DNA of 64,000 nucleotides from the NCBI GenBank assembly GCA_014376805.1, contig JACMQU010000036.1, positions 1-64,000 on the forward strand. Reading direction: 5' to 3'. Shown here in pieces: positions 10,888 to 51,319 of this stretch. Position numbers and translations under genes: made by a program. Under the pieces are notes generated by a model that did no database searches, was not told where the DNA came from, and was given only the letters and a program-made list of their open reading frames with translations. Positions within the stretch are counted from its first letter, which is position 1; each line of letters begins with the position of its first letter. The DNA comes from Bacteroidia bacterium. GTDB taxonomy: Bacteria; Bacteroidota; Bacteroidia; UKL13-3.

Positions 10888-10909
10888 GAATATATAGAAA
10901 TAAGAAAGA

Positions 10910-32132: not shown

Positions 32133-32627
32133 ATGAAATATTTTAAATTATCTATACTTCTTTTTGTTTTATTACTTATGTTAACTTGTAAGAAAAATAA
32201 GAATACAGTTAATGCCAATACAGATTTTTTTGGACCAGTACCGGTAGATTTTTATATCAATATGGATTTGCCTTCTGCCGTTGATCTTAAATTTCCTAAC
32301 GGTTATTTTTATCAGTTAAATGCGGGCTTCAAAGGTGTAGTTGTTTATAATACCGGCTTTAGCGGACCAGATCAATATGTGGCATACGACCGAACATGCC
32401 CATATAGGCCCGACAGCAGTTGTAGCTATGTAAGTATTGATAGCAGTTCTACTTTGTTTTTCCGTTGCGGACAATACCTCACACCCGGAAAGTTTACCGG
32501 TTGTTGTGCTTCAAAATTTACAGCCATAAATGGTACACAGGTAGAAGGAAAAGCTACACGAGGTTTAAGGCAATATTATGTTACAAATTATGGCAATCAG
32601 TTAAGAATAACCAATACGCCTTTGTAA
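32133..32627 (+). CDS. Lipoprotein with a Rieske-like fold lacking the usual histidine ligands
   Basis: The 164-residue protein has a lipobox (LMLTC, Cys19). The pattern DRTCPYRP (Cys89), CCASKF (Cys124-125) and a G-(K)-A-T-x-x-L-x-Y-Y-V ending follows the layout of a Rieske domain, with cysteines at 89, 97, 112, 124 and 125. The CxH and CxxH cluster motifs are not complete because the His positions are Tyr and Ser. A [2Fe-2S] cluster is therefore doubtful; disulfides are more likely outside the cytoplasm. Related small lipoproteins occur in Bacteroidota with unknown function. It follows the GNAT gene by 4 bases. Confidence 0.6.
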   Translation: MKYFKLSILLFVLLLMLTCKKNKNTVNANTDFFGPVPVDFYINMDLPSAVDLKFPNGYFYQLNAGFKGVVVYNTGFSGPDQYVAYDRTCPYRPDSSCSYVSIDSSSTLFFRCGQYLTPGKFTGCCASKFTAINGTQVEGKATRGLRQYYVTNYGNQLRITNTPL

Positions 32628-32667
32628 CTAAATGCTAAATTTTAAATTGCTGAAAGTTTTTAAACAC

Positions 32668-34182
32668 ATGAAAAAAATATTATTGAATCTGATACTGCTG
32701 TTTTTAATTAATAGCTTATTTGCACAGCCGGCTTTTATTAACGACTCATTAGACATTTACATAAAGCGCGAAATGGAACGCTGGCAAGTTCCCGGCCTTG
32801 CTATTGCCATTGTTAAAGATGGTAAGATTGTTTTGTGCAAAGGTTATGGGGTAAAAGAAAGTGGTAAAAAAGATGCTGTAAATGAATATACTCTGTTTCA
32901 GATTGCCAGTAATAGCAAGGCTTTTACAGGCACGGCCATAGCTTTGCTTAATTACGAAAAACGCTTGTCTTTGGATCAGAAAGTAACAAACTACTTACCT
33001 TACTTTAAATTGTATGATACTGTTGCCACACAACTTTGTACCGTACGCGATTTGTTGTGTCATCGTATTGGCTTGTTTACATTTCAGGGTGATTTTTTAA
33101 ATTGGGGAAGCACTTTAACAAGAAAAGAAATTGTTGAACACCTGCAATTTACCAAACCTGTTTATAGGTTCAGGTATAATTTTGGATATTGTAATGCCGC
33201 ATTTGTTACTGCCGGTGAAGTTATTAAAACGGTAACTGATACTAGCTGGGATGATTTTATCGGCTCCCGTTTTTTTGAACCACTGGAAATGAAGCATACC
33301 AATACCTCTTATCTTACTATGTTAAACGATAAGAATGCATGCAAACCACATACACTTGTAAATAATAAATTGCTAGCAATGCCGCTAACTAATATAGATA
33401 ATATGAGTTCATCGGCAGCTATAAATTCTTGTGCCAGGGATATGGCAAACTGGTTGTTATTTCAGTTAGACAGTGGTAGGTTTAATGGCAGGCGTTTAAT
33501 CCCTTTTTCTGTGTTGGCTGAAACCCGAAAATCACAAATGGTGGTTAGTGATGTTAATTCACGCTTATTTAAAACAAAGCACTTTACTACTTATGGCCTT
33601 GGTTGGTTCAGTTATGATTATGAGGCCCGCAGAATATGGGAGCACAGTGGAGGTTCTAATGGCTTTGTTACCAAAACAGAATTTATTCCCGAAGAAAATC
33701 TTGGCGTTTTGGTGTACACCAATTCTGATGCGAATTCACTTTATGAGGCATTGTGTAAACAAATAATAGAAGCCTATTTAAAAATGCCATACCGCAATCT
33801 TAGCGAGAAGTATTTTATCCCATCACAACAAGGATATATAGCCGATCAAAAAGAATTAGATAGTTTACAAAACCTTGTTCAGATACATATAAAAACCCCT
33901 GTAGATTTTAAAAAATATGAGGCGGCCTATTCCAATGAATTATATGGTAAAATAGAAATCAGGAATGTAAAAAATCAACTTCGCATTATCTTTAGTAACC
34001 ATCCTCAGAATACAGGAAATCTGAAATATATTGGCGATCATAAATTTTTATGTACTTATTCTGATCCCACTTTGGGAGTACAGGTGATTCCATTTGAAAT
34101 GCTGAATGGTATAGCTGATTCAGTAACAATTAAAGTGGCAGATTTTATAGATTATCAATCATATCTATTTAAGCGGTTATAA
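32668..34182 (+). CDS. Secreted class C beta-lactamase-like serine hydrolase
   Basis: I chose the ATG at 32668 (MKKILLNLILLFLINSLFAQ) because it gives a clean signal peptide; the ATG at 32632 would add 12 residues before it. The hydrolase domain has the nucleophile motif SNSK (in FQIASNSKAFTG), a YxN-type site (GYCNAAF) and HSGGSNGF as the third motif. A C-terminal part after about residue 400 resembles DUF3471. Members are D-aminopeptidases, esterases or beta-lactam hydrolases acting in the periplasm. It closes the operon that starts with the dehydrogenase. Confidence 0.85.
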   Translation: MKKILLNLILLFLINSLFAQPAFINDSLDIYIKREMERWQVPGLAIAIVKDGKIVLCKGYGVKESGKKDAVNEYTLFQIASNSKAFTGTAIALLNYEKRLSLDQKVTNYLPYFKLYDTVATQLCTVRDLLCHRIGLFTFQGDFLNWGSTLTRKEIVEHLQFTKPVYRFRYNFGYCNAAFVTAGEVIKTVTDTSWDDFIGSRFFEPLEMKHTNTSYLTMLNDKNACKPHTLVNNKLLAMPLTNIDNMSSSAAINSCARDMANWLLFQLDSGRFNGRRLIPFSVLAETRKSQMVVSDVNSRLFKTKHFTTYGLGWFSYDYEARRIWEHSGGSNGFVTKTEFIPEENLGVLVYTNSDANSLYEALCKQIIEAYLKMPYRNLSEKYFIPSQQGYIADQKELDSLQNLVQIHIKTPVDFKKYEAAYSNELYGKIEIRNVKNQLRIIFSNHPQNTGNLKYIGDHKFLCTYSDPTLGVQVIPFEMLNGIADSVTIKVADFIDYQSYLFKRL

Positions 34183-34224
34183 TATTAAAATTGATTATAC
34201 ATTAAATTGAATCTATTTATCCAT

Positions 34225-34751
34225 TTATGATTCGATAACTTTTTTCATAATCACCATTCCTCTGTATTCTTCTTTCATAAGGGGATATGTTAATTGCAGC
34301 GTATCACAAACTTCAAAGCCAAGTTTCCGATAAAAGTGAATAGAGTCTGTGCTGCTATCCATTGCTTTTAAAAACACAATTTTTTTCTTTAACGTCTTCG
34401 CTTTTTCGAATGCATTTTGCATTAAGAGTTTTCCTAAGCCCTTTCCTGCAGCCTTTTTTAAAATATAAATCCGTTCAACTTCTAGGCAATTTTCATTTTC
34501 ATTGTTTTGAAAATGAGATGAGAGTCTGATCTTTTAATAGGCAATTGCCTCCTCCTTTTCATATGCCATAAAATGAAGGGTATTTAAATCTTTTAATTCT
34601 TCTAAAAGTATTTCCGGATTGTAAGCGTGCTGTTTATACCATGCTCCCTTATCATACCATAAATAATTGAAATTTTCGTCGTAAATTTTTAAAGCTAACG
34701 CTGATAATTTTTCTGCCTGCTATAGTCTATCTTCACTATTTCAATTTTCAT
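34225..34751 (-). pseudogene. Broken GNAT acetyltransferase gene
   Basis: The reading starts at the ATG 34751 (MKIEIVKIDYS). It shifts frame near 34700 (continuing AEKLSALALKIYDENF), meets an in-frame TAA at 34534-34536 after EKEEAIAY, and resumes KIRLSSHFQNNENE. It then ends normally (AAGKGLGKLLMQNAFEKAKT, then SIHFYRKLGFEVCD). The GKGLGK acetyl-CoA motif and the F-Y-x-K-L-G-F motif mark it as GNAT. One frameshift and one stop make it a recent pseudogene, unless they are assembly errors. Confidence 0.85.
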
Positions 34752-34943
34752 CGCTCTAAATTAACACTGTTAGGCCATTTGTTGCCAGTTATTTCTAAAC
34801 GGTGTTACTTATTATGCAAGGCATGGAGCGTTTAACAAAAACAGGTTGCAGGAATATATGCAGGATAAAAAAAATGTTCCGGTAATGTCCTATAAATTGC
34901 AAGTGTTTTTACAGCTAATCATAATTATTGTTAGCTATATACA

Positions 34944-35783
34944 TTATTCTATGCAAATCTTTTTAAATTGTACATCATCACCTAATTCAATCTTAAGCAA
35001 GTATATGCCTTTTAAATTGTAATTTCCGATGTTAAAAGTAGGGGTATTTGCTCCTTTGGTTAATATTTGATTACTTAATATCTGTATATCTTTTCCATTT
35101 AAATCAATTATAGAAAACACCGCTTTGGTGTCTTCTTTAACGGCAAGCTGCACCTGTAAAGTTTCAGTAGCCGGATTTGGATATATGTTAAAAGAGTTTA
35201 GGCTTTTAGGTTCAAACAGGCTCGTTGTACCTGATGAAGGAAAGTTAAGATTTGTGGTATATACAAAATCACCGCCGTCTCCACCTGTGCCATTTGCGGC
35301 CATTCCCGAAGCATAAAACGTAACCGTTCCTGCATTGGTAACCGGTGCTACCCAGTTAAACTTAAAAACTTTGCTGTCTGTATTACCTAATGTACCGTTG
35401 CTGGTATGGGTCATATATGAATTACCGGAGCCTAATCTTACATTTGTATTTCCGTTTGTTGCAAGGGTTCCTGCAGCAATGCCACCGGTTTTTTTAGCTG
35501 ATAATGCAAAACCAAACCTGCTTCTGCCGGTAAATGCCACTGTAACATTTACCTCATAAGTTTGCCCGGGCGTATAACTGGCAGGATTACCGGTAATAGT
35601 TATAGCAACACTACCTCCATTTACAGGATTAACTGGGGTGCCTGAGTGGCAACTGGTACAGTTGCTTTCTCCCGGGGCACTCGTATATCCGGCGTTTGGT
35701 CCGGTTGAATAAGAGGCAACCTGCGTTATATTAAAAATAGCAACAAGTGCAAATACGGATACTAAAGTTAATTTTTTATTCAT
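34944..35783 (-). CDS. Choice-of-anchor V / Reeler-like domain protein with CxxCH motif and T9SS sorting domain
   Basis: I chose the ATG at 35783 (MNKKLTLVSVFALVAIFNI), which gives a signal peptide; the longer frame to 35852 does not. The mature start has GESNCTSCHSGTP, a CxxCH that could bind one c-type heme. A beta-sandwich of about 130 residues like reelin/choice-of-anchor V follows, and a type A T9SS tail (NIYPNPATETLQV, then YLLKIELGD). It is exported to the cell surface. A candidate -7 box (TACTTTTG) sits at 35850-35857 on this strand. The role is unknown; redox or heme binding is a guess from the motif. Confidence 0.85.
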   Translation of the reverse strand: MNKKLTLVSVFALVAIFNITQVASYSTGPNAGYTSAPGESNCTSCHSGTPVNPVNGGSVAITITGNPASYTPGQTYEVNVTVAFTGRSRFGFALSAKKTGGIAAGTLATNGNTNVRLGSGNSYMTHTSNGTLGNTDSKVFKFNWVAPVTNAGTVTFYASGMAANGTGGDGGDFVYTTNLNFPSSGTTSLFEPKSLNSFNIYPNPATETLQVQLAVKEDTKAVFSIIDLNGKDIQILSNQILTKGANTPTFNIGNYNLKGIYLLKIELGDDVQFKKICIE

Positions 35784-35858
35784 ACAGGTTTTTTTGTACT
35801 TAGGATTATTAACAGCAAATAAAGGCTGCTTTCGTAAATTTAAAACGAACAAAAGTAT

Positions 35859-36746
35859 TTATTGATGGTACTTTTCGCGGATTTGTACCCGAAAGTTACC
35901 GGGTGTATATGCTGTTGATTTTCTAAAAAACCTTACAAAATATGTTGGGTCTTCAAAATTTAGGCTGAACGCAATTTCTTTAACGGAGTTATTGGTATTA
36001 AGTAATAACCGTTTAGCTTCCAGAATAACCCTGGCATGAATATGTGAACTTACCGTGATTCCGGTAATTTTTTTTACCGTATCGTTTAAATGACTTGGAG
36101 TAATGGATAACATTTCTGCGTATTCATTTACCTCCTGTAGTTTTACAAAATGGAGTTCAAGCAATTGTTTAAAACGAGATACTAAATCATTGCTCTTAGA
36201 GAAAATCGAGGTAATTGAATCTTTATATTTATTAAGGAATATACGGTTGCTATAAACAAGCATAACATTAAGGTAAGACCTCATTAGTTCTTCATGCATT
36301 TCACCATCGTTTTTAGATTCTTTAACCAGGCACTCCACCAACATCCTAAAGGTTTTTAATTGCTCAGTATTGCAGGTAATAATTGGAGGTTGTGTATAGT
36401 TATTGTAAAGTGTTATTTGTTGCAAAAATTTTTGTTGACCTTGCAGGGTGTAGAGTTCTTCAGGAAAAGTAATTACATATCCGTAACATCCTTTTGCCCT
36501 CTTAATTAAATGAACCTGTCCGGGAGAAATAAAATGTAAGGAGGCCGTTTCAATTTTATATTCCTGGAAATCGATCTTATGTAAACCGCCACCTCTATAA
36601 AAAATAAAAATCTCATAATAACTATGGCGATGAGGTGAGTTAACGGTTTCATATGTTTCCATAGTAACCGCATCCAGTTTTTCAATGTCAAAGGAAATTT
36701 CCTTATTATTAAAACGGTGAAGGGGAATAACCTGTTTGATTTTCAT
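35859..36746 (-). CDS. AraC-family transcriptional regulator
   Basis: The 295-residue protein has an N-terminal cupin-like sensing part (HRHSYYEIFIFYRGGGLHKI) and a C-terminal double helix-turn-helix (VNEYAEMLSITPSHLNDTVK, then SVKEIAFSLNFEDPTYFVRF and FRKSTAYTPGNFR). It would bind DNA as a ligand-dependent activator. It shares orientation with the T9SS gene downstream and the lipoprotein gene upstream, but the 75-base gap to the former and the 49-base gap to the latter do not prove an operon. Confidence 0.92.
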   Translation of the reverse strand: MKIKQVIPLHRFNNKEISFDIEKLDAVTMETYETVNSPHRHSYYEIFIFYRGGGLHKIDFQEYKIETASLHFISPGQVHLIKRAKGCYGYVITFPEELYTLQGQQKFLQQITLYNNYTQPPIITCNTEQLKTFRMLVECLVKESKNDGEMHEELMRSYLNVMLVYSNRIFLNKYKDSITSIFSKSNDLVSRFKQLLELHFVKLQEVNEYAEMLSITPSHLNDTVKKITGITVSSHIHARVILEAKRLLLNTNNSVKEIAFSLNFEDPTYFVRFFRKSTAYTPGNFRVQIREKYHQ

Positions 36747-36795
36747 TGTGTTTAAACCAAAAAAAGAAACCGTCAGTTAAGTTCATATTCAATTA

Positions 36796-37524
36796 TTATT
36801 TAAAGAATACTTTTACATAATCTGACTTATTTGTTTTTACATTAACTCTTTTAAAAACCACCGTATTATTGTCTACCCATCTGGCCTCACTTAAACTTAT
36901 TTCAGTTAGCTCCCTGATCCAGACAGGTTCAATTTTTTTGTTTTTGATTTTTAAATATTCGATACCGTTAAATTCAAGTCCGCTTTCCAGATCCTCTTTA
37001 ATTACAATGATCTTATCATGGCCGGGAGAAACCAGAGGATAATCAATTATTTCGGTTATGCTTCCGTCAGATTTATCAACTAATTCATACGTTGACCACT
37101 CATAATGCGATACGTGCAACAGCCATTGATTAATTTTAGCCATATCCGTATATTCATCATATTGCTTATATGATTCCACGTCATCGTCATTCACATTTAA
37201 TAGCTTAATCTGCTCACCGTTTTGAAGTTTAAAAACATAACCACTATCATCCCGGTGCGTGATGGAATCTTCTCTAAAAATTTTATGTTGCGGGTTTTGT
37301 TCTCCCAAAACCGCAAGTGCAGGTGTAAATGTTATGGTATCATTTTCTATAATAAATGTATCGAGTTCAGAAAAAAGTGGTACCGAATGTAATGAAGTTG
37401 TAGCCAGATCATCTGTTAATAAAGGATTTCCGGTATTGCAGGCTGTATGTTGAACCAAAAGCAATATCACCAATATTCCAGACATGCTCCTGCATAGATA
37501 TTTTACTATTCTTATGGGTTTCAT
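36796..37524 (-). CDS. Uncharacterised lipoprotein
   Basis: The 242-residue protein has a lipobox (LVQHTAC, Cys about 29), so it should be lipid-anchored. The rest is polar and beta-rich, with repeated WxxD-type blades (KINQWLLHVSHYEWSTYEL, EISLSEARWVDNNTVVFKR) that loosely resemble WD40-like/TolB propeller strands. No family was recognised. Confidence 0.6.
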   Translation of the reverse strand: MKPIRIVKYLCRSMSGILVILLLVQHTACNTGNPLLTDDLATTSLHSVPLFSELDTFIIENDTITFTPALAVLGEQNPQHKIFREDSITHRDDSGYVFKLQNGEQIKLLNVNDDDVESYKQYDEYTDMAKINQWLLHVSHYEWSTYELVDKSDGSITEIIDYPLVSPGHDKIIVIKEDLESGLEFNGIEYLKIKNKKIEPVWIRELTEISLSEARWVDNNTVVFKRVNVKTNKSDYVKVFFK

Positions 37525-37716
37525 AACGGTTCAATAAGCAAGATTAAAGTACTGGATTTATCTTCTCTTAGCGCAGGAAAGATATAAGTTTTTTAGTAAA
37601 TAATTAACCGCAAATTTTTTAAATTGCCTATTTTAATTAGTAATCGAACTAATGATTTATGGTTTGTTCCTAGGAGATATTCCATGATTTATTTTACCCG
37701 GTTACCATTTATTATT

Positions 37717-38481
37717 TTAAGGGCGATTCATTAAAGGAGGAAAATATTTTCCTGTGTGAATTTTAATAAAAATACCAAGAGAGTATAATTCTTTATTGTA
37801 ATTAATACTTCCATTGCTTAATTTAATGCAATATAGATACTGAAACTGAATCTTTACATTTCTTATTCCGGCCCTTAAAGTAATTGCGGGCTCAATAAAA
37901 CTGTAGTTTAAATTTAACTCATCAAAATGGTCATCATATAGGCGTTCAACCGGCCAGTTTTTCGTTTTTATATTAAGATAACTAATGTTAGAATACCTAA
38001 GACCGGCCGAAATTTCAAAAAGACGTAATTTATACCCAATGGCAGGTTGAATAAACATTTTGAGTCCATTGGCTGTTAAACTTCGTTGTTGAACAGCAAA
38101 TCCGTTCATGGGATCGCTGTAATTTTTAAATTGAGACATGTGTCCGTAACCTATGCCGCCGTATGTTTCAAAAATGATTTCTGGTTTAGGATATATTTTT
38201 CTGAAATATCCGGCCCCAATTTCTCCCAGAAACCCTTTGCCTCCATTTCCAACCCGGTCAATTGGCGCATCTTGTTGTTCAAAGTAACCATTGGCCATTA
38301 CCCCAATATGATCAGTTACAGAATAAGCGGCCTGAAAATTTGTTGTTGTTGCAGCTATTGCTATTTCTTTTTTAGCAGAGAAAAGAGGCGTATTCAGCAT
38401 TGTGGATCTATAGGCCACATTGCAGGAAGAAATGGCACATATACAAATAGCAATTTTGGTTATAAGTGTTTTCATACGCAT
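37717..38481 (-). CDS. Uncharacterised lipoprotein-like beta-barrel protein
   Basis: The 254-residue protein has a possible lipobox (CAISSC, Cys20). Alternating aromatic/small strands follow (GEIGAGYFRKIYPKP, FETYGGIGYGH, FEISAGLRYSNISYL) and a final strand LYSLGIFIKIHTG, suggesting an 8- to 12-stranded outer-membrane barrel. A lipidated barrel would be odd, so the Cys may instead be part of an ordinary signal. No family was recognised. The start could be Met1 or Met3. Confidence 0.55.
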   Translation of the reverse strand: MRMKTLITKIAICICAISSCNVAYRSTMLNTPLFSAKKEIAIAATTTNFQAAYSVTDHIGVMANGYFEQQDAPIDRVGNGGKGFLGEIGAGYFRKIYPKPEIIFETYGGIGYGHMSQFKNYSDPMNGFAVQQRSLTANGLKMFIQPAIGYKLRLFEISAGLRYSNISYLNIKTKNWPVERLYDDHFDELNLNYSFIEPAITLRAGIRNVKIQFQYLYCIKLSNGSINYNKELYSLGIFIKIHTGKYFPPLMNRP

Positions 38482-38796
38482 GTTTTATACCTTAAATTAA
38501 AATGCAAAATTCAACCCCTTATCCATTATTGCAAGGCTACCTGTTAATTATGTAATAATTTTAATTATCATTCTATTCAACCGTACTTTAACAATTTACT
38601 ATAACAGATTCGTTTTCCTTTACCCTTTATTCTAAATCTTTTAAATTTATGATAATCAGCAGTGGTGCTAACGGTCAATATAAAACGCCTTCAACCTCTT
38701 AAAACATTTCGCCATTTTTTGAAGACTTTTTTTTATTATAGGGTCAGGCAGGCACAATAAAACTTACTGGTGTCTTATCCTTTTCATTTATACATA
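38482..38796. other. Intergenic region without recognised features
   Basis: The 315 bases are AT-rich. No open frame, promoter box, clear hairpin or RNA gene was found. Confidence 0.5.
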
Positions 38797-39330
38797 CTAT
38801 TTATAGTTGAAGCTAAAGGTACCGCCGGTAATATTTCTTTTAATCTGAAAACCTAAAGGATTTTTAAATACACCGGTAAAATTAAATTCTCCGCTCACCT
38901 GTTTATTGGTGAGATCGATTGATTTTATATTAATAACCCCATTAGGCTGAGCATCAAATTCCTTATCATTCGTATTCGTAAGGTTATCATCAAGCAGGTA
39001 AAATCCATAAAAGTCATCGCCGGCAAACATAGTGTCCACTGCTACTTCGCAAGGGAAAACAAAATCGAGATTGATGATATGAAATGTGGTGTCTTTCATA
39101 CTATGGCGAACATAATGATTTCCCTGAATGGAATAACCGCCCTGATCAATTTTAACAGCATAATCGTTGGGTGCCCATAAAATTGTATCAATATACGCAC
39201 TCATTTTTACATTATAAATTTGAGTGAAAGTCAATTGAAAATCGTCATCTGGTTCACCTGTTATTTTTTCAATTTTTGTGCAGGCAGATAGGCAATGTAT
39301 TGCCAAAATGAGATATAGTATCTTTTTCAT
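38797..39330 (-). CDS. Uncharacterised lipoprotein of the polysaccharide operon
   Basis: The 177-residue protein has a lipobox (CLSAC, Cys16), so it is lipidated. The remainder is a small beta-rich domain ending NITGGTFSFNYK, a pattern common to small Bacteroidota lipoproteins. Its start overlaps the synthase stop as ATGA, so it belongs to the same operon as the GH18-NodB-GT2 enzyme and may help export or bind the product. No specific family was recognised. Confidence 0.65.
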   Translation of the reverse strand: MKKILYLILAIHCLSACTKIEKITGEPDDDFQLTFTQIYNVKMSAYIDTILWAPNDYAVKIDQGGYSIQGNHYVRHSMKDTTFHIINLDFVFPCEVAVDTMFAGDDFYGFYLLDDNLTNTNDKEFDAQPNGVINIKSIDLTNKQVSGEFNFTGVFKNPLGFQIKRNITGGTFSFNYK

Positions 39331-42300
39331 GCTTTACTTTCCTTACCAATTATGCCTTTAACATTTCCGCTTCTTTTTAAAATTCCCCAATTAACCAGTT
39401 CTCCTTTTATTGCATTTAGCAATGATTTGATTAAAACAACAAAAAGCAATTGGCGGTATACAATGCGTTGCGGGATCATCAGTAATAAAATTTTCAGTCT
39501 GATTTTTTCTCCTTCATAAGCATAAGCCAAAACTGCAACTAACATCTCTATAACCATATACAAAAGATACAGAGCTAGTGTTACAGAAGTCTTACCAAAG
39601 ATCAGGGAAAAGATTAACATTAAATCTACCAAAGGATTAAAGAGCGGAAGAAAAATCTGAAATAAAATAATGTTCGGCAGTAGTATCCAACCTATGTTTT
39701 TATGTTTAAAACTAAACAATAGATTTTTATGTTTCCAAAAACTCTGCAGTATACCATAGCACCACCTGTACCGTTGTTTCATAAATGCGCCAACAGTTTC
39801 AGGTGCCTCGGTAAAGGCATAGGCATTGTTACATGTTTTTACTTTATAACCAGCGCTTAACAGGCGCATTGTCAAGTCGCAATCTTCAGCAAGTGTATCT
39901 AATTTAAAGGAACCTACTTCTTCAACATGCGTTTTTCTAAACATACCAATAGCACCTGGTATAACCATTATTGCATTCAGCAAATCAAAAGCGAGTCTGT
40001 CAAAATTCTGACTGGTAGTGTATTCAATGCTTTGCCAGCTTGTAAGGAGATTAATGGTGTTGCCCACTTTTACATTACCTGATAAACCCGCCAGTTGCGG
40101 ATCTTCAAAAAAAGGAAGCATTTTTTCAATAGCATCTATTGCAATCAGGGTGTCAGCATCAATACAAAATAAAAGTTCCCCATTACAAATTTTTATTCCA
40201 TAATTAATTGCTGAAGCTTTGCCACCATTAGGTTTAGTAAAAAGTTTCACGATAGAATGCTTATAAAAGTTCTCCGATACTTTTTTAAAAGTTTCATCTG
40301 TTGAACCATCATCGACAACAATTATTTCAAAATTTTTATAAGTGCTTTCCAGAAGTTGTGCTACCGTTTTCACAATATTAATTTCTTCATTATAAGCTGG
40401 AATAATGATGCTCACCAATTTGTTAATCCCATTTATTCCGACCGATTTTTTTAAGTTCATTTTTTTCTTGGTGGCCAGCATTGCAATAACTATAGCCCTG
40501 AATGCGGTAACGATTAAAGCAAAAAAAAACAAAGCAAATAAAAACTTTTGACCGAAATATATTAATGTGATAAGCACAATATTAAGTATACTTAACTTTT
40601 TATCATTGCCACTTGTAATAGGTGGCATCAATTCATCTTTAGGCTTACCAAGTAACCCTGCAATTGTGGTAAAAGTGTAACCGTTATTTTTATAATATTC
40701 AATAATAGCAGGCAGTGCTTTTATTGTCTGTTCTCTGTTTCCACCGGCATCATGCAATAGTATAATATTACCAAGTCCTTTTTGCGCTATTGCTCTTGCT
40801 ATAATTGTATCTGCACTAATTCCTTTTTCCCAGTCACGCGGATCAATAGAAGATCCAATGCTAATATAATTATCTGTTTTACCAATGGCGATAGGCTGCA
40901 ATTCCGAAAATTTTGTTGGCTCGGCATCTGTGTTATAGGGTGCTCTGAAAAGTATTGTAGAATGGTCTGTTATGGCTTCTATCATTCTGCGCGTTGTTCT
41001 TAATTCAATAAGGGTGCGTTCCTTACTTACCAGTTCAAGGTTTACGTGGGTGTATGTATGATTGCCAATTTCATAACCTTCATTATAAATTTGTTTTAAT
41101 CCCGGCACATCACTCTGTATATTAATTCCGGTTACAAAAAAGGAAGCCGGTACGTTATATTTTTTTAATATGGAAATGATTCTTGGGGTATAATCCGCAT
41201 CCGGACCATCATCAAAAGATAGTACGATCATTTTAGGTTTCTCACCCGCTTTCCTGATAACATAACCCGATGGAAGTTCAATATATTTTTCTTCAGAAAT
41301 AAGCTGGTCTATGCTATCATATTCAAAATGTATAACTCCTTTTGATGGCGATGTAACAACGTTAAGAATCTCTCCCGCACCTATATAATCAACGTTAACA
41401 GAGGCCGCAATTTCCTTTAGCTGCAGGGTAACAGGTGGTTTATTTTTGATAGAATCGATGCCAAGGTTCTTGTCATAAAAATTCCAGATGCGTTCGTCTT
41501 CAGAACCAAGCCGCCATAATGCACACCCCGCGGTGCCAAAATCCTCACCTGTACGCATGGCATTATACGCAGATGCCGCATCTGTAAAATAAACTTCGTG
41601 CTCCTTGTCTTCTTCGTCCCAATAGGTATAATTTAAATTGTAAGTATGATTGTTAAAATGTGGAATGGTATCGCTCTCCGAAGCTATAGCAACCGCTTCC
41701 TGGTAAGTAATATTTGCCCCTTCAAAACCTTTAACCCAATCATAACCGTAAGCCGAAATACACAATACAACTTTTTCTGCCGGTATAACTTTCAATGCCT
41801 GATCCAAACCATTTTCAATCCAGTTTTGAGCGGCAACCGCACCAGGATAACTGCTTTCGTTATGCTGATCATAAGCCATCAAAAAAATGAAGTCATTGTA
41901 TTTAATCAGCTCTTTATAGTTATAATCTTCATTAAAAGGAGAGACATCCTGAGTAACCATAAAACCGTTTTTGTGCAGGGTATTATAAAGGTCTTTCTGA
42001 AAAGAAATTATATACTCATCGGTGGTTTCATTAAGTTCCTCAAAATCTATGTTAACCCCATTAAACTTGTATTTTTTTAAATTGTAAATGATGCTCGCAA
42101 TAAACTTCTTTTTTCTTACTGGGTCATGAATAATGCGCGCCACATTTTTACCATTCCATTTTTGGTTAAAGTAATTGGATACCATAGGAACTATGTGTAC
42201 ATTATTTTTGCGCATTATAGCAAGTGCTTTTAAAGAGACATCGTTAAAATCAATAGCTATTTCATCGCTTGAGTCTGATACAAAAAACCATTCCGGTAAC

Positions 42301-42716
42301 ACTACATTCATTTTGCCAATGTGGTCTCTTAAGGATAAATAAGATTGGATATCCCAGTTAACAAAGAAGCCTGCCTTAATAGGCAGCAATGGTTTTAAAT
42401 GTGTATTGTGGCTTTTAAATAATGGCAGGTTTTGCCTCAAATAAAAGTCGGCATGATTTTGAGCTCTAATTTTGCTGATGTCTTTATTAAATTCATCATG
42501 TGTTGCTTTACTTATGGTATCTCTTTCCGTTATTTTTTTAAAGGTGCTTTCACCGATTTGCTTTGGCAGACTTAGTTTTTCTGATTTACTGATTGAATAG
42601 AAACCTAAGGCCGTTAACAAGATAAACAGCGCAATGGATGAGCCTATAATCAGCCTGAAACTGTGCCAGCGAAGGCGCGAATCTGACCGGAAGATCTGTT
42701 TATTTTCTATTTCCAT
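39327..42716 (-). CDS. Trifunctional GH18 + NodB polysaccharide deacetylase + GT2 polysaccharide synthase
   Basis: The 1129-residue membrane protein joins three enzymes. After a membrane span (about 22-42) comes a GH18 domain (about 110-420) with catalytic Asp224 and Glu226 in NGVNIDFE; the first two Asp of the DGxDxDxE motif are Asn, as in SleL/YaaH-type members. A NodB deacetylase domain (about 495-690) has the metal triad Asp503, His553 and His557 (FDDGPD, HTYTH) and LLHDAGG. After two spans (about 710-750) comes a processive GT2 domain (about 765-1000) with Asp802/803, DAD (853-855), EDCD (944-947) and QRYRW (981-985), then several C-terminal spans. By analogy with Pga and chitosan systems, it would polymerise and extrude a GlcNAc-type glycan and then deacetylate and trim it in the periplasm. 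The sugar is inferred. Confidence 0.9.
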   Translation of the reverse strand: MEIENKQIFRSDSRLRWHSFRLIIGSSIALFILLTALGFYSISKSEKLSLPKQIGESTFKKITERDTISKATHDEFNKDISKIRAQNHADFYLRQNLPLFKSHNTHLKPLLPIKAGFFVNWDIQSYLSLRDHIGKMNVVLPEWFFVSDSSDEIAIDFNDVSLKALAIMRKNNVHIVPMVSNYFNQKWNGKNVARIIHDPVRKKKFIASIIYNLKKYKFNGVNIDFEELNETTDEYIISFQKDLYNTLHKNGFMVTQDVSPFNEDYNYKELIKYNDFIFLMAYDQHNESSYPGAVAAQNWIENGLDQALKVIPAEKVVLCISAYGYDWVKGFEGANITYQEAVAIASESDTIPHFNNHTYNLNYTYWDEEDKEHEVYFTDAASAYNAMRTGEDFGTAGCALWRLGSEDERIWNFYDKNLGIDSIKNKPPVTLQLKEIAASVNVDYIGAGEILNVVTSPSKGVIHFEYDSIDQLISEEKYIELPSGYVIRKAGEKPKMIVLSFDDGPDADYTPRIISILKKYNVPASFFVTGINIQSDVPGLKQIYNEGYEIGNHTYTHVNLELVSKERTLIELRTTRRMIEAITDHSTILFRAPYNTDAEPTKFSELQPIAIGKTDNYISIGSSIDPRDWEKGISADTIIARAIAQKGLGNIILLHDAGGNREQTIKALPAIIEYYKNNGYTFTTIAGLLGKPKDELMPPITSGNDKKLSILNIVLITLIYFGQKFLFALFFFALIVTAFRAIVIAMLATKKKMNLKKSVGINGINKLVSIIIPAYNEEINIVKTVAQLLESTYKNFEIIVVDDGSTDETFKKVSENFYKHSIVKLFTKPNGGKASAINYGIKICNGELLFCIDADTLIAIDAIEKMLPFFEDPQLAGLSGNVKVGNTINLLTSWQSIEYTTSQNFDRLAFDLLNAIMVIPGAIGMFRKTHVEEVGSFKLDTLAEDCDLTMRLLSAGYKVKTCNNAYAFTEAPETVGAFMKQRYRWCYGILQSFWKHKNLLFSFKHKNIGWILLPNIILFQIFLPLFNPLVDLMLIFSLIFGKTSVTLALYLLYMVIEMLVAVLAYAYEGEKIRLKILLLMIPQRIVYRQLLFVVLIKSLLNAIKGELVNWGILKRSGNVKGIIGKESKA

Positions 42717-43635
42717 TGTTTTGTATTGCGAAATATAAATTATACAGAATGTTTAAAGAGAAATAACTGTAGCCTCCAATTAGATACGGACTTAAAAGAG
42801 GGTCTTCATAGCGCAGTGCAATCGGATAATTATAATGATAAAGTGGAGTGATTACAAAATTTTTGAACTCAATATTCAGTCCCAGCATGGCTTCATAATT
42901 TACAATATCAGGACTTTGCAAAACATGTTTGGTTTTATAATCGCGGTATGGAATATTATTTACAATATACCTTGTTGTATCGCCATATCCCACGCTTTTG
43001 TCCCCGGCATATCCTTCCACAAGAAGCGCCGGCTTTATATTCCAGTAGAAGTTTTTGCCGGTACCGGGAAGGTCTATGGTGTAATCGATCTGAGCCTGTA
43101 TAAGCAACGCGTTTTCTTTGCCCCACAAATAATAAACACCCAGTTCGCCATTTAGCTTTTCGTAGTTTGTTGACAGCGCTGCCTGTATCATATTTTTAAA
43201 ACTCAAACCAACAAAAAAGGAATCTTTAGCAAGAAACCATCTTTCATACGAAACATTTAAATTTAAATGTGGAGTGAGATCTTTTTCAATACCAATACCT
43301 AAATCGGTTTTAGCGAATGGGGTGTTTATGCCACTCCATTTATAATTATTTAAGTTAACATAAATTCCAACAGGTGTTTTGTATACCAACGAAGTATTAA
43401 AACCATATTGTTTCAACCCAAAATCCCTTCCCCTGTATACAACTTTGCTCACATAAGCAGCTTCAAATGAAATTAAATGACTGTTTTTATGCGCCATATT
43501 TATACTGTCTTGTTGCAGCTGGTCAAGGCTATCCTGAATGATGTCGGCCCTTTGTTGCATGGTTGTTCCAGGTTCATTTTGAGCGAATGATAAACAATAC
43601 CAGAAAACAAAAACGCTAAACAATATTGCCCGCAT
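42700..43635 (-). CDS. Outer-membrane barrel protein of the polysaccharide operon
   Basis: The 311-residue protein has a signal peptide (ending CLSFAQ). After a short coil-like polar stretch (residues 25-50) come beta-hairpin strands typical of outer-membrane barrels (SFEAAYVSKVVYRGRDFGL, LNLNVSYERWFLAKDSFFVG) to a final strand SLNILYNLYFA. It overlaps the synthase start by 17 bases and is the first gene of the operon. It could be the outer-membrane exit for the polymer, taking the role of PgaA, but it lacks the TPR region of PgaA and no family name is secure. Confidence 0.7.
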   Translation of the reverse strand: MRAILFSVFVFWYCLSFAQNEPGTTMQQRADIIQDSLDQLQQDSINMAHKNSHLISFEAAYVSKVVYRGRDFGLKQYGFNTSLVYKTPVGIYVNLNNYKWSGINTPFAKTDLGIGIEKDLTPHLNLNVSYERWFLAKDSFFVGLSFKNMIQAALSTNYEKLNGELGVYYLWGKENALLIQAQIDYTIDLPGTGKNFYWNIKPALLVEGYAGDKSVGYGDTTRYIVNNIPYRDYKTKHVLQSPDIVNYEAMLGLNIEFKNFVITPLYHYNYPIALRYEDPLLSPYLIGGYSYFSLNILYNLYFAIQNNGNRK

Positions 43636-43877
43636 AGGTATATGATGAATTAAAAGGGTTAAAGTTTAATCAGGTACCGGCCTGTTTATGCTGCAAGGTA
43701 CTTAATAAGCGCAGTTAAGAGATTGGGTTTGGGTTAAATTGTACTTAAAAGATTTGATGTAACACCACTAGCTGATTCTTTAATCCTATAGTCTCTAATA
43801 AAACAGGTGTTTACTTTATTAAAAATTTTTAGAGTGAAAATTCTACCTTTACTTGCTAAATTAAATTTAGACTTGTA

Positions 43878-45062
43878 ATGGCAACAATAAAATGGGGCAA
43901 TGAAGAAGTAGAAATATTTGAAATAGAACAACTGGAAGAAGTAGATTCTTAAATTGGCATAGAAAACATTGTCAGTCCTTTTAATCCTTAAGACATCAAG
44001 ATTATTGTTGAGCCGAAAACTATTGACCATTTAATTTCTAGACTTCGCCATGATGAGATTGATTTGAATACAGAATTTCAAAGAAAGGGTAACCTTTGGA
44101 ATTTTGAAAAACAAAGTCGCTTAATTGAATCAATTTTACTTAGATTACCATTACCAGCTTTTTATTTTGATGCCTCAAATGATAATAAATGGCTTGTTGT
44201 AGAAGGTCTTCAAAGGTTATGGAGTTTGAAAAATTTTATCGTCAATGTTGAATTAGTAGAATCAAAAAAGCCCGAAGATAAATCTATCGAATTAAGTGGT
44301 TTAGAGATTTTAACTGAATTAAACAACAAGGGAATTACCTATAATAAGTTAAACAGGACAATGTAAAGAAGAATTTTAGAAACCCCTATAACTACTTATT
44401 TAATTCAACCTGAAACTCCAAAGAATGTAAAGTATAATGTTTTTAAAAGAATTAATTCCGGTGGATTAGGTTTGAACGCTATGGAAATAAGAAATGCACT
44501 TAACCAAGAAAGAATTTCTGAAAACAAAACAAGTCCTGCAGTTTTTATGAAGGAGATGTCTGAAAGCCCAAAATTGAAAGCCATTTTAAAATTGCTGGAT
44601 AAAAGAATGGAAGACCGTGAGTTGTTATTAAGAGCTTATTCTTTTATTGAAAAGGATTTTTCTGAATGTGAGAAACCTTTATCTAGTTTCCTAGATAAGA
44701 CAATAGAAACATTATCTGTTAAAACGAATAATGAACTTGAAAGGATCTCAACTGGGATTATTGAAGCTGTTTATTTTCAACAGGAATTATTCGGTAAACA
44801 TATGTTTAGTCGTTCCATTAATGGAAGCAGTATTAAATTGAACAGTGCATTATTTGAAGTTTGGATTTCCGAAACTTATAAGCTGACCAGAGTTCAAAAG
44901 GAAAAATTGATTATAAATAAAGGAGAACTTACAGAGAAATACAAAGCGATGTTTAGAGAGGATGATTTTTATAAATCTATTGTATCATCAACATCAGGAA
45001 AAGGATCTGTCATGACAAGGTTTAATAAAATTAAATCCTTAATAAATACATATTCAAAATGA
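43878..45062 (+). pseudogene. DUF262-domain protein gene with three in-frame TAA codons
   Basis: A single frame runs from the ATG at 43878 to the TGA at 45060-45062, broken only by TAA at 43950-43952, 43989-43991 and 44364-44366. Its protein has a DUF262/ParB-nuclease-like start, with TEFQRKGNLWNFEKQSRLIE and VVEGLQRLWSLKNF. The family's D-G-Q/L-Q-R active motif here reads EGLQR. A C-terminal helical part follows the KRINSGG motif. DUF262 proteins include GmrSD-type restriction nucleases. The ATPase gene begins in an ATGA overlap, so these were coupled genes. With three stops it is probably dead; misassembly or readthrough are less likely, since TAA ends many intact genes here. Confidence 0.85.
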
Positions 45063-46172
45063 TTACTAGGATTAGAATAAGGAATTTTAAAGCGTTCAGA
45101 GAGGCCGAAATAAATTTGTCCTCGCTAAATTTATTAACAGGCATGAATGGCATGGGTAAGTCAACTTTTATACAATCGTTGCTTTTACTTCGTCAATCTG
45201 ATGCTAACTTGATCCCCGAAATAAGAGGTTTACTATTAAAAGGAGAGATGATTGATATAGGGAAAGGTAAAGATGCCCATAGTATTAATGCCGATAGCGA
45301 TATTATAAGTTTTGAAGTGGATTACGAATATAAACCGGTTGTAAATGTATCGTACAATTTTGTTGCGGAAAGTGATGTACTCCCCTATGATAGCGCAAAT
45401 GAAAAAAATTTAATAAGCGGAGGGCACTTTTCTTTATTTAATAGCAATTTCAAATATATAAAGGCAGAACGAATAGCTCCAGACCATAATTATAAAGCAA
45501 ATCTTGCAGCTGTTCAACAAAATGGTTTTTTAGGATATAGAGGAGAGAACACTCCTTTATTTATTGCACTTAAGGAAGAGACCCAGTTGGTTCGAAAAGT
45601 GTAATTCATCCGAAAGCTGTTTCTGATGAAATTATTTCAAATGTAGATGCATGGCTTAATGAAATTACTCCGGGAACACATATCATATCAAGATATTTCG
45701 GAGAGTTAGATATTGTAAAAATGGGTTATCAATTTGATTATGGAAAAGATGTAACTCCTGAATTTAGTCCAGTCAATGTAGGGTTTGGTTTTACTTATAC
45801 CTTACCCGTAATTTCTGCAATTCTCTCAGCAAAAAAGGAGATTTAATAATAATTGAAAACCCCGAATCACACTTGCATCCGCAAGGTCAGGCTAAATTAG
45901 GGGAGTTAATTGCAAGAGCAGCCAGTGGGGGTGTACAATTAATAATTGAATCACATTCTGACCATTTGTTTAATGGAATTCGCGTTGCTATAAAAAATGG
46001 CTTTGTGAAATCAGATGATGTTTCCGTTTTCTATTTTGTGAGAGATGAAAATTCTAATGAGCATATTACAACTATTGAACAACCTATAATTGAATCAAAT
46101 GGCAGACTTAGTCACAAGCCAAAAGGCTTTTTTGATGAATATTCAAAGCAATTAGATGAACTCATAAAATAA
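45059..46172 (+). pseudogene. AAA-family ATPase (DUF3696) gene with two frameshifts
   Basis: The first frame (45059-45604) has Walker A GMNGMGKSTF after IRNFKAFREAEINLSSLNLL. It shifts near 45590 into a frame reading VIHPKAVSDEIISNVDAWL to about 45830. It shifts again after AKKGDLIIIENPESHLHPQ (Walker B region) and ends with ESHSDHLFNGIR and GFFDEYSKQLDELI, the DUF3696 tail. Joined, it is a complete SMC/OLD-like ATPase. Such ATPases pair with DUF262 nucleases in defence loci (family knowledge). The second shift sits at an A/G run, a normal place for indels. Confidence 0.85.
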
Positions 46173-46178
46173 TTAGAA

Positions 46179-47134
46179 ATGGTTTACATGTTTAATGAGT
46201 TATCTCTCTCACAAGTAGATTCAATATCTGATGTCAGAAAGGTTTTAGAAACATTTGTAAAATCATACATACGAGCAAAGGAATTTGGATTAACTGAAAT
46301 TCGAATTCACGAAAGGGTTAAGGATTTGTATCAATTTAAATTGCACGATAATTACAGAATTGATACTTGGTTGAAAGATAATGAAGTTAATTACGATTTA
46401 AAAGATAGATTTAGGGAGATTGTTGCTAATCCACCTTTAATTAGGGAAGATGAAATAATGGAAAGGAGTTATATGAACGCTCCGAATTTTATAAAATTAT
46501 TGATGAAACAAAAAACGCTGTTTTTGGTTTGGGTGCAGCACACATTTATGGCACATTGGCCCTAAGTTTGGGAACATATAATGAGTGGTTAAAATCTTCA
46601 ATTTCAATTCAACATTACTCATTAAATTATCAAGGAAATGAGAATATTCTTGATGTTAATGTATTTAACTTTTCATCGAAGGAAATTCATTCTGAATGGA
46701 TTAAAAATGAGCAAAAGCAAAACCTTGAAAAAAGCATTGACCTTTGGAATAAAAGGGAAGAGTATTTTCCAAACATCTTATTTGGAACTGATTTAGAAAA
46801 TCAACTTAAAAAAATAGGATTGACAAAAAAATTTTCTAAAATTATTGAATGTTTAAAAAGATTGGATGCGTATGCTAAAATTTGGAATGAGGGTGGGTTT
46901 AATTTGAATAAACTCAAAAATCAGTCCTTAATGGACATTAGTGGGGAATCGGAAAGCACCATGAAACAATACGCTGCATTGAGAATGTTCAGTTTATCTA
47001 ATGGTCAAAAAGTTCAATTTGAATTGCACATTAAAATACCTGATGTTAGAATTTATTTTGTCGCAAATGAAACATTACATAAAATAACTGTAGGATACAT
47101 TGGTATGCATATTAGAACTTCTTTGTATAATTGA
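46179..47134 (+). pseudogene. Unknown third protein of the cassette, one frameshift
   Basis: Frame one (46179-46565) gives ELSLSQVDSISDVRKVLETF and IRIHERVKDLYQFKLHDNYR. It must shift near 46460-46475 to the frame reading YERSEFYKIIDETKNAVFGL, which runs to 47134. Joined, the protein has about 318 residues. Its C-terminal part (FELHIKIPDVRIYFV, then KITVGYIGMHIRTS) has the look of a small RelE/ParE-like or similar domain, but I cannot name the family. It begins 6 bases after the ATPase stop, so it was part of the same operon. Confidence 0.65.
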
Positions 47135-47273
47135 TGTATAACAAAATCGATTTCTACAGCACACTTTTATTTTTGTTTAAACTAAAAAAGCTAACCCAAT
47201 TACCTAAGTCTACATCAGTTACAAATTACGCATATCTTCAAGCTTATCATGAACATAACAATAAGTTTAATAT

Positions 47274-49919
47274 TTACGACATTGCCGGCTCTGCACCAAA
47301 CTCCATTTCACCTACATCATCCATTTCTTTTAGTTTCATAATCTGATCCAAAGCATCCGGAACAACATCAGAACATATAGTGATAAAACTATGTCTGGTT
47401 GCGTTTTTTATGGCGTAATCTATCGCTTCAGTTTCTTTCATGATCACGGTAACCTTTTTGTTCGGATCAACCTGGGTAATTCCCTTCATCATTAAAGCAA
47501 CAATTTCTTTTTCGGTACGGCCACGTAAATTTTTGTCCTGCCTGATTATAATCTCATCAAATATTTTTGCGGCTATGGTTCCGAGTGCAATGGTATCTTC
47601 ATCGCGCCTGTCGCCTACACCCGCTATCACACCAATATGGCGCGCATCAATTTTTGAAAGAAGTTCTGCTATGGCTTCAAATCCTGCTGCATTGTGCGCA
47701 TAATCAACCATCACCTCAAAATTTCTGAATCTGAAAATATTCATTCGTCCCGGTGTTTGTGCCGGGCCGGGAATAAAGGTAGCAAGTGCTGTGCGCATAT
47801 CTTCAATTTTAAAATTACGGATAAAACCTGCTAAAACCGTAGGAAGTATATTTTGAATATTATAGGTGGCCCTTCCACCAAATGTAAGCGGAATATTAAC
47901 AGATTTTTCAACCCTTATTTTCCATGTCCCTTTACAAATAGTAACATAACCGTTTTCGTGTATGGCCGCCAAACCGCCTGTTTTCATATGCTCAACTATT
48001 AACGGATTGTTTTCGTCCATGCTAAAGTAAGCCACCTTGCAATTTAGTCCGTTTGCCATTGCAGCGGTCCATTTGTTATCAGCATTTAAAATAGCATAGC
48101 CTTCAGGTAAAACACTTTCAGGAACTACACCTTTTACACGGGCTAATTGTTCAATTGTATCAATGTCCTGCAAGCCTAAATGGTCTTCGGCTATATTTGT
48201 AACTATGGCCATATCGCAGTTATGAAAACCTAAGCCTGCACGCAATATTCCGCCTCGTGCACATTCCAGTACGGCAAAATCAACAGTTGGATCTTTTAAT
48301 ACAAACTCAGAGCTAACCGGGCCGGTGCAATCTCCACGCATCATGAGTTGATTTTGAATATATATACCATCTGTTGTGGTATATCCTACTTTATAACCCA
48401 TTGTTTTTACCATGTGAGCCATTAAGCGGGTAGTGGTAGTTTTACCATTGGTACCGGCAACAGCAATAATAGGGATGCGGGCACTTGTTCCAGGAGGATA
48501 TAACATATCTATAACCGGCTCGGCTACATTGCGTGGCAAACCCTCCGTTGGATCAATATGCATTCTGAAACCCGGAGCGGCATTAACTTCTAACACGGCA
48601 CCTCCGTTTTTTGTTATCGGCTCACTTAAACTTTCAGCCATTATATCAATGCCACAAATATCCAAACCAATAATCTGCGCAATACGTTCACACATAAAGA
48701 TATTATCAGGGTGAACTCTATCTGTTATATCTGTTGCTGTACCTCCGGTACTTAAGTTAGCAGTTGGCTTAAGCCATAACTCTTCGCCAGCCGGAAGGAT
48801 GCTTTCCAGCGTTAAATTGTTTTTTATAAGAATGTCTTCTGTAAATAAATCAATCTTAATGCTTGTCAGCGTTTTTTCATGTCCGAAACCTCTTCTTGGA
48901 TCTTTATTGATAAGGTCTATCAACTCTTGGATGGTATGTTTGCCATCCCCTTTTACAGCTGCCGGTTTTCGGATAGCAGCAGCTACAAATTTATAATTGA
49001 TCACCAGAACTCTATGGTCGAGCCCGGTTATAAAGCGTTCAACAATAATGGCCCTTCCGTATTTTTTTGCAGCCTCCATTCCTTTCACAGCTTCCTCCCA
49101 GTTCATTATATTGGTGGTTGCACCTTTGCCGTGATTGCCATCAACCGGTTTCGTAACAAGTGGATATTTTACACTTTCTACAGCAGCCAGCAAGCCTTCT
49201 TCGTTATATACGATTCTTCCTTTAGGTACCGGAATTTCTGCTGCTTCCAGTAAGTTTTTAGTTTCTTCTTTATCGCATGCAATATCTACAGCTATACTGC
49301 TTGTTGTGCTGGCAATGGTGGCTCTTATTCTGCGTTGGTTCTTACCGTAACCTAACTGTACAAGAGAGCTACGGTTTAAACGGATATAAGGTATGCCTCT
49401 AGCTACAGCTTCATCCACTATGCTGCCGGTACTGGGCCCCAGGCGTTCATCTTCTCTTATTTCGCGCAGGTTCTGTATGTCATCTGTAAGGTCGTAAGGA
49501 ATGTTTGCAATAAGGGCTTCTGCAATTCTAACGGAGGCCTTGGCTGTATAAACCCCTGCCTTTTCTTCCATATAGCTGAACACTACATTATATATGCCAT
49601 GTTTGCCGGTTGTTCGGGTTCGTCCAAAACCACACTCCATACCGGCAAGGCTCTGTAATTCAAGTGCTATATGCTCAATTACATGGCCCATCCAGGTGCC
49701 TTCTTTTATGCGTTCAAAAAAACCTCCCGGCTTGCCTACAGAACACCTGTGACTATACATTGTAGGGAACATTGCTGCCAGGCGTTCCCCATATCCCTCA
49801 ATCATATTAGTAGGACGCTCTTCCATTTCCTCTAAATCAAGCCGCATGTGTATAAGTTTATGCCGGCGAACCGACCAGTAATTTGGCCCACGCATTACTT
49901 TGATGTCAAGTATTTTCAT
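47274..49919 (-). CDS. cphA: Cyanophycin synthetase
   Basis: The 881-residue cytoplasmic enzyme builds multi-L-arginyl-poly-L-aspartate (cyanophycin) from Asp and Arg with ATP. Its N-terminal CphA domain (1-160) has GYGERLAAMFPTMYSHRCS and HVIEHIALELQSLAG. An ATP-grasp domain (about 215-475) has TKPVDGNHGKGATTN and VLEVNAAPGFRMH. A Mur-ligase-like domain (about 480-881) has the P-loop AGTNGKTTTTRL and MVDYAHNAAGFEAI. Length and order match the family. The cphB gene is divergent, 145 bases away, and an iaaA-type gene lies next to that. Confidence 0.96.
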   Translation of the reverse strand: MKILDIKVMRGPNYWSVRRHKLIHMRLDLEEMEERPTNMIEGYGERLAAMFPTMYSHRCSVGKPGGFFERIKEGTWMGHVIEHIALELQSLAGMECGFGRTRTTGKHGIYNVVFSYMEEKAGVYTAKASVRIAEALIANIPYDLTDDIQNLREIREDERLGPSTGSIVDEAVARGIPYIRLNRSSLVQLGYGKNQRRIRATIASTTSSIAVDIACDKEETKNLLEAAEIPVPKGRIVYNEEGLLAAVESVKYPLVTKPVDGNHGKGATTNIMNWEEAVKGMEAAKKYGRAIIVERFITGLDHRVLVINYKFVAAAIRKPAAVKGDGKHTIQELIDLINKDPRRGFGHEKTLTSIKIDLFTEDILIKNNLTLESILPAGEELWLKPTANLSTGGTATDITDRVHPDNIFMCERIAQIIGLDICGIDIMAESLSEPITKNGGAVLEVNAAPGFRMHIDPTEGLPRNVAEPVIDMLYPPGTSARIPIIAVAGTNGKTTTTRLMAHMVKTMGYKVGYTTTDGIYIQNQLMMRGDCTGPVSSEFVLKDPTVDFAVLECARGGILRAGLGFHNCDMAIVTNIAEDHLGLQDIDTIEQLARVKGVVPESVLPEGYAILNADNKWTAAMANGLNCKVAYFSMDENNPLIVEHMKTGGLAAIHENGYVTICKGTWKIRVEKSVNIPLTFGGRATYNIQNILPTVLAGFIRNFKIEDMRTALATFIPGPAQTPGRMNIFRFRNFEVMVDYAHNAAGFEAIAELLSKIDARHIGVIAGVGDRRDEDTIALGTIAAKIFDEIIIRQDKNLRGRTEKEIVALMMKGITQVDPNKKVTVIMKETEAIDYAIKNATRHSFITICSDVVPDALDQIMKLKEMDDVGEMEFGAEPAMS

Positions 49920-51121: not shown

Positions 51122-51319
51122 ATGATTAATACAGATGATGTTCAGATTGAATTAAGTCGTGAGTTTCAGTCTTATATTGCCGAAGTGCCTGAATTACCTG
51201 GCTGTATAGCCAATGGTGAAACAGAAATTGAAGCAATTGAGAATGTGAAATTAATTATCAGTGAATGGATGAACACTGCCAAAACAAGAGCAGAACTTCG
51301 TGCACTGGCTGTTAATTAA
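51122..51319 (+). CDS. Orphan HicB-family antitoxin-like protein
   Basis: The 65-residue protein has the HicB core YIAEVPELPGCIANGETEIE and AIENVKLIISEWMN. HicB antitoxins bind and neutralise HicA RNases and usually carry a DNA-binding domain; here no DNA-binding extension and no HicA ORF appear within several hundred bases either side. It could have another role, or the toxin may have been lost. Confidence 0.75.
   Translation: MINTDDVQIELSREFQSYIAEVPELPGCIANGETEIEAIENVKLIISEWMNTAKTRAELRALAVN

What the first reader, a model, noticed from the sequence alone, without database searches (positions are those of the whole stretch)
43878..47134. Decayed three-gene DUF262 / DUF3696-ATPase / unknown cassette
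The DUF262 gene reads through in one frame with TAA at 43950, 43989 and 44364; the ATPase changes frame twice; the third gene changes frame once. Gene order, an ATGA overlap and complete domain motifs show an operon that was once intact. A DUF262 nuclease with an SMC-like DUF3696 ATPase is a plausible anti-phage pair, and the third protein is not a family I recognise, so the parent system may be undescribed.
Basis: partly seen in the sequence, partly recalled or inferred. Interest (0 to 1): 0.72.

Follow-up and report, generated by a model that had tools for sequence, protein, structure and literature searches.

The report
Decayed copy of Menshen phage-defence operon
A three-gene stretch of a Bacteroidota genome is a recently broken copy of Menshen, an already described bacterial anti-phage system, sitting at a spot where related bacteria carry nothing or other genes; the copy itself is ordinary, although its third protein may end in a RelE-like RNA-cutting domain.

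Summary
Window 43878-47134 carries three collinear genes with six disabling lesions: three in-frame TAA in gene 1, two single-base deletions in gene 2, one in gene 3. The rest of the 101-kb contig has long open genes, so assembly error is unlikely, but reads were not available.

The proposal that the parent system may be undescribed is wrong. PADLOC models identify NsnA (8e-98), NsnB (1e-106) and NsnC (2e-62): the Menshen anti-phage system. Intact operons in the same order occur in dozens of genomes; the closest (L025) is 75/80/66% identical. Two same-genus genomes have the flanking genes directly adjacent (empty site); a third carries type I restriction plus Septu nearby. Amino-acid change is not accelerated relative to L025, so decay is recent. 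One more loss hits the nucleotide-binding motif (DGLQR to EGLQR; D is 63/63 in intact homologues).

The 'unknown' third protein gives a confident AlphaFold2 model (pLDDT 93). Its conserved C-terminal domain resembles RelE/YoeB mRNA interferases (Foldseek probability up to 0.97, but E about 0.1 and no profile-level support). An RNA-cutting effector is suggested, not shown. Verdict: a decayed member of a known kind.

The parts
43878..45062 (+). nsnA pseudogene (DUF262/GmrSD_N protein), in-frame TAA at 43950, 43989, 44364; D109E in the DGLQR motif
   Evidence: PADLOC NsnA E=7.9e-98; Pfam GmrSD_N 1.6e-18; stops read directly; D109 in 63/63 intact homologues, E here
45059..46172 (+). nsnB pseudogene (AAA_15/AAA_21 ATPase with DUF3696), two net -1 frameshifts
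   Evidence: PADLOC NsnB E=1.2e-106; Pfam AAA_15 5e-25, DUF3696 1.3e-13; frames, alignment to L025
45572..45635 (+). first frameshift interval in nsnB (net one base short of L025)
45831..45836 (+). second frameshift in nsnB: run of six A where L025 has seven
46179..47134 (+). nsnC pseudogene, one net -1 frameshift at about 46455-46485
   Evidence: PADLOC NsnC E=1.9e-62; no Pfam family; alignment to L025
46700..47134 (+). part of nsnC encoding the conserved C-terminal domain (HIK...R...YIGxH) with RelE-like predicted fold (limits approximate)
   Evidence: AlphaFold2 models of the L025 homologue, Foldseek, conservation
45059..45062 (+). ATGA overlap of nsnA stop and nsnB start
   Evidence: same overlap in L025
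47274..49919 (-). cyanophycin-synthetase-like gene conserved in the genus; the variable spot lies next to its 3' end (context, not part of the system)

Best explanation
The locus is a horizontally acquired Menshen anti-phage operon (nsnA-nsnB-nsnC) that has recently become a set of pseudogenes, in a variable accessory spot beside a conserved cyanophycin-synthetase-like gene. No functional product is expected from it now (inferred from the lesions). In the intact system I think it most likely that NsnA, a DUF262/ParB-Srx-like NTP-binding protein, senses infection or gates activation; NsnB, an SMC/OLD-like DUF3696 ATPase, transmits the signal; and NsnC is the effector, whose C-terminal domain acts as a RelE-like RNase that stops translation in infected cells. 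Shown here: gene identities, order, lesions, relatives, empty site. Inferred: all three roles; the NsnC role rests on fold resemblance without statistical significance. The confidence given is for the identity and decay, not for the roles (RNase step about 0.3).
For: Identity: PADLOC NsnA 7.9e-98, NsnB 1.2e-106, NsnC 1.9e-62 over nearly full length. Operon: 79 NsnB loci across many phyla, most with NsnA immediately upstream and an NsnC-sized gene immediately downstream; an NsnA-NsnB fusion in L041. Decay: six lesions across all three genes plus D109E in the nucleotide-binding motif, D in 63/63. Recency: amino-acid changes private to the window 21/15/11 versus 22/10/9 private to L025 for NsnA/B/C. 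Variable spot: flanking genes directly adjacent in G004 and G015 (L090, L091); type I R-M and Septu near the same site in G001 (L096). Defence neighbours of intact copies: HsdS and Septu beside L009; Vsr, cytosine methyltransferase and REase beside L010. NsnC fold: pLDDT 92.9 full length, 89.5 for the C-terminal part; eight of the top nine PDB matches of the C-terminal part are RelE or YoeB chains, best 3bpq_B with probability 0.97 and TM by target 0.72. NsnC alone is frameshifted in L010, L011 and L033.
Against: No reads were available, so locus-specific assembly or strain-mixture error is not excluded. The lack of extra amino-acid change is less than long neutral decay with six lesions would suggest. 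RelE resemblance: Foldseek E about 0.1-0.2, none below 0.001; profile comparison with 30 RelE/ParE relatives gives nothing; Pfam finds no toxin family with confidence.
Confidence: 0.93

Rival explanations
1. The lesions are assembly or sequencing errors and the operon is an intact Menshen system in the living organism.
For: The genome is a draft in 183 contigs, 88.5% complete; one lesion is in an A-run; amino-acid change is not accelerated.
Against: Six lesions in 3.26 kb while 15 long frames elsewhere on the contig are open; chance clustering about 1e-9; three lesions are substitutions to TAA, and D109E is a further substitution in an invariant motif.
Confidence: 0.06
2. The genes are still expressed by stop-codon read-through or programmed frameshifting.
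For: All three stops are TAA and the reading continues well beyond each.
Against: Intact homologues are single uninterrupted frames; TAA ends the intact neighbouring gene 47274-49919, so the codon is a normal stop here; the frameshift sites share no motif; D109E adds damage.
Confidence: 0.01
3. NsnC of intact Menshen is not an RNase; its C-terminal domain is a binding or inhibitory module and the damaging activity lies in the OLD-like ATPase NsnB or in NsnA.
For: RelE resemblance is not statistically significant and has no profile support; a review describes a Menshen component as a predicted OLD nuclease (PMC10952713).
Against: NsnB of this branch is about 371 aa and matches ATPase and DUF3696 models only, with no TOPRIM hit in Pfam; NsnA lacks DUF1524; the most conserved residues of NsnC lie largely in its C-terminal domain.
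Confidence: 0.5

Closest known systems
Menshen anti-phage system (NsnA-NsnB-NsnC)
   Same: All three proteins match PADLOC Menshen models over nearly full length, in the same order with the same tight spacing as relatives
   Different: The window copy carries three stops, three frameshifts and a D-to-E change in the DGxQR motif, so it is not expected to work
PD-T4-2 (another DUF262 system)
   Same: NsnA here also matches PD-T4-2_A (2.8e-27)
   Different: Far weaker than the NsnA match, and the partner genes are those of Menshen
GmrSD / BrxU / SspE (DUF262 + DUF1524 enzymes)
   Same: N-terminal GmrSD_N domain; DGxQR-type motif
   Different: No DUF1524/HNH nuclease domain; separate ATPase and NsnC partners
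PARIS (AriA), Gabija (GajA), Septu (PtuA) ATPases
   Same: NsnB shares the OLD/SMC-like AAA domain (AriA 3.6e-27, GajA 1.5e-18)
   Different: The NsnB model scores 1.2e-106; no TOPRIM domain found; different partners
RelE/YoeB mRNA interferases
   Same: Predicted fold of the NsnC C-terminal domain, probability up to 0.97; conserved H, R, Y
   Different: No significant E-value, no sequence-profile similarity, an additional N-terminal domain of about 170 aa, no adjacent antitoxin gene

Membership tests
Menshen | NsnA (DUF262) gene | tested here: met
   PADLOC NsnA 7.9e-98, residues 19-392; GmrSD_N
Menshen | NsnB (SMC/OLD-like ATPase) gene | tested here: met
   PADLOC NsnB 1.2e-106, residues 1-367; AAA_15, DUF3696
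Menshen | NsnC gene | tested here: met
   PADLOC NsnC 1.9e-62 and 6.4e-61 over nearly full length
Menshen | Three genes adjacent in the order A-B-C on one strand | tested here: met
   same in most of 79 relatives
Menshen | Intact open reading frames (for a working system) | tested here: not met
   three TAA and three frameshifts: a decayed member, not a working one
Menshen | Protects against phage | not testable with these tools
   needs a bench test with an intact copy
GmrSD-type restriction enzyme | DUF262 and DUF1524 domains together | tested here: not met
   only GmrSD_N found; no DUF1524
RelE/YoeB toxin (NsnC C-terminal domain) | RelE fold by structure comparison | tested here: inconclusive
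   probability 0.97, TM 0.72 by target for 3bpq_B, but E 0.14
RelE/YoeB toxin (NsnC C-terminal domain) | Sequence-profile match to the RelE/ParE family | tested here: not met
   hhalign E 0.58 over 13 columns; one of 47 members hits ParE_toxin at E 0.14
RelE/YoeB toxin (NsnC C-terminal domain) | Ribosome-dependent mRNA cleavage | not testable with these tools
   needs biochemistry

The most novel reading that the evidence does not exclude
Menshen's NsnC is an infection-triggered RelE-like RNase controlled by a DUF262 sensor and an SMC-like ATPase instead of an antitoxin, and loss of the system in this genome was favoured by the cost of that activity. A 2025 paper on Menshen domain polymorphism (NAR gkaf357, seen here only as a citation) was not readable and may already report the NsnC assignment.
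Probability: 0.3. Interest if true: 0.4.

Novelty: new member of a known kind. Interest (0 to 1): 0.15.

Why it matters
As a finding it mainly closes a question: the 'undescribed' cassette is a known defence system in decay, one documented case of recent loss of all three Menshen genes. The by-product worth keeping is a testable idea about NsnC, whose activity I could not find described in the literature held here: a confident structural model with a conserved H/R/Y cluster in a RelE-like C-terminal domain.

Tried and rejected
Stop-codon reassignment or read-through: intact homologues have single frames, and only one of the three stops is a CAA-to-TAA change. A C-to-T hypermutation pattern: rejected for the same reason. 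Flanking direct repeats or a tRNA as an insertion scar: only short chance repeats and no tRNA in the window. Accelerated protein evolution as a clock of decay: no excess over L025, and dS is saturated. Sequence search of NsnC against solved structures: nothing. NsnC against viral structures: nothing convincing. NsnC profile against RelE/ParE relatives: nothing. A first script to extract RelE/ParE proteins picked wrong frames and was replaced. The 2025 Menshen paper is not held.

Full report
Observation. Gene 1 (43878-45062) has TAA at 43950, 43989 and 44364 in an otherwise open frame. Gene 2 (45059-46172) runs through three frames and gene 3 (46179-47134) through two. Alignment with the closest intact relative, L025 (a Bacteroidetes MAG, isolate Loclat_bin-03441), shows each frameshift as a net single-base deletion: in 45572-45635, in an A-run at 45831-45836 (six A against seven), and at about 46455-46485. 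The ATGA overlap is shared by L025. The third stop replaces CAA (Gln in 43 of 63 homologues); the second replaces a mostly Lys position; the first lies in the variable N-terminus.

Error or decay. The contig (101 kb) carries 15 open frames of 500 aa or more, up to 1381 aa. Six random errors would all fall in these 3.26 kb with probability about 1e-9. A further substitution, D109E, hits the DGLQR motif, where D is present in 63 of 63 intact NsnA proteins. I take the decay as real, but reads were not available.

Identity. PADLOC scores NsnA 7.9e-98, NsnB 1.2e-106 and NsnC 1.9e-62, each over almost the whole protein. Pfam gives GmrSD_N for gene 1, AAA_15/AAA_21 and DUF3696 for gene 2, and nothing for gene 3. 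This is Menshen; a review lists it among anti-phage systems, states that deletion or mutation of its DUF262 gene abolishes resistance, and notes that it lacks DUF1524 (PMC10952713). That the Nsn gene names belong to Menshen (Millman et al. 2022) is from my own knowledge; the papers read here do not spell out the letters.

Relatives. A scan of genome contigs with NsnB gave 79 loci. In most of them an NsnA gene ends at the NsnB start and an NsnC-sized gene follows at once. Intact copies lie beside other defence genes: HsdS and Septu at L009 (Hufsiella), Vsr, cytosine methyltransferase and REase at L010 (Arcticibacter). L025 itself lies among non-defence genes (by eye). Twenty-eight plasmid records and five viral contigs carry more distant NsnB relatives. 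Within the genus, NsnB occurs in four of 18 other genomes, with low identity to the window copy, which fits repeated horizontal gain.

Site. In G004 and G015 the gene corresponding to window 32133-32627 lies about 15 bases from the cyanophycin-synthetase-like gene (window 47274-49919), so the whole 32.6-47.3 kb stretch is absent there. G003 and G009 have other short inserts at that junction. G001 carries, one gene further on, a type I restriction system and Septu. The Menshen remnant thus sits in a variable spot that can take up defence genes in this genus. No insertion scar was found.

Age of decay. Against outgroups, amino-acid changes private to the window are 21, 15 and 11 for NsnA, B and C; those private to L025 are 22, 10 and 9. 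There is no detectable acceleration, so inactivation is recent relative to their split. Since all three genes are hit, and NsnA three times, either several lesions arose fast after release from selection, or inactivation itself was favoured. These two are not separable here.

Mechanism. NsnA: a DUF262 protein with the DGxQR-type motif; in related enzymes this domain binds and hydrolyses NTP and regulates a nuclease (PMC10952713). NsnB: an SMC/OLD-like ATPase; its best sequence relatives among solved structures are OLD and Rad50 ATPases. One locus (L041) fuses NsnA to NsnB in a single frame, pointing to a direct partnership. NsnC: AlphaFold2 with 47 relatives gives pLDDT 92.9. Of the top nine PDB matches of its C-terminal 150 residues, eight are RelE or YoeB chains (3bpq_B probability 0.97, TM 0.72 by target; ribosome-bound RelE 4v7k, 0.80), though no E-value is below 0.08. 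The strongest conservation lies there: H287 and R294 invariant or nearly so, R272, F274, Y310 and G312 nearly so. Three loci with open NsnA and NsnB (L010, L011, L033) have a frameshift in NsnC alone, as one might expect of a costly effector, though three cases prove nothing. Profile comparison with 30 RelE/ParE relatives found nothing. The model 'NsnA gates, NsnB transmits, NsnC cuts RNA' is therefore an inference, with about one-in-three odds for the RNase step.

Verdict. A recently decayed member of the known Menshen system at a genus-level accessory spot. Interest is low, apart from the NsnC lead.

Noticed in passing
L096 (G001:C4) 6183-16754: Type I restriction-modification genes with a Septu (PtuA/PtuB) pair and a PDC-S36-like gene inside, near the same genus-level variable spot beside the cyanophycin-synthetase-like gene.
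   Followed up: partly
L041 4882-7113: NsnA and NsnB fused in one 743-aa open frame in a Rhodobacteraceae MAG, suggesting direct interaction of the two proteins.
   Followed up: partly
L010 3998-6004: NsnA of Arcticibacter svalbardensis has about 280 extra N-terminal residues, part of which match a type IV restriction enzyme model (1.2e-13); other loci (L045, L062, L075, L076, L079) also have long NsnA frames.
   Followed up: partly
L010 7123-8081, L011 4111-5107, L033 7123-8104: NsnC alone is frameshifted while NsnA and NsnB stay open; in each case the conserved C-terminal domain is cut off. Possible selective loss of a toxic effector.
   Followed up: partly
window 39327-42716: 1129-aa protein joining a glycosyl hydrolase 18 domain, a polysaccharide deacetylase and a family 2 glycosyltransferase.
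   Followed up: no
window 51122-51319: Small open frame (65 aa) that looks like a HicB-type antitoxin; no toxin partner checked; recognised by eye only.
   Followed up: no
window 32632-47273: About 14.6 kb of accessory genes absent from the same junction in G004 and G015; apart from the Menshen remnant these show no defence family in Pfam (beta-lactamase-like, AraC regulator, secreted protein).
   Followed up: partly
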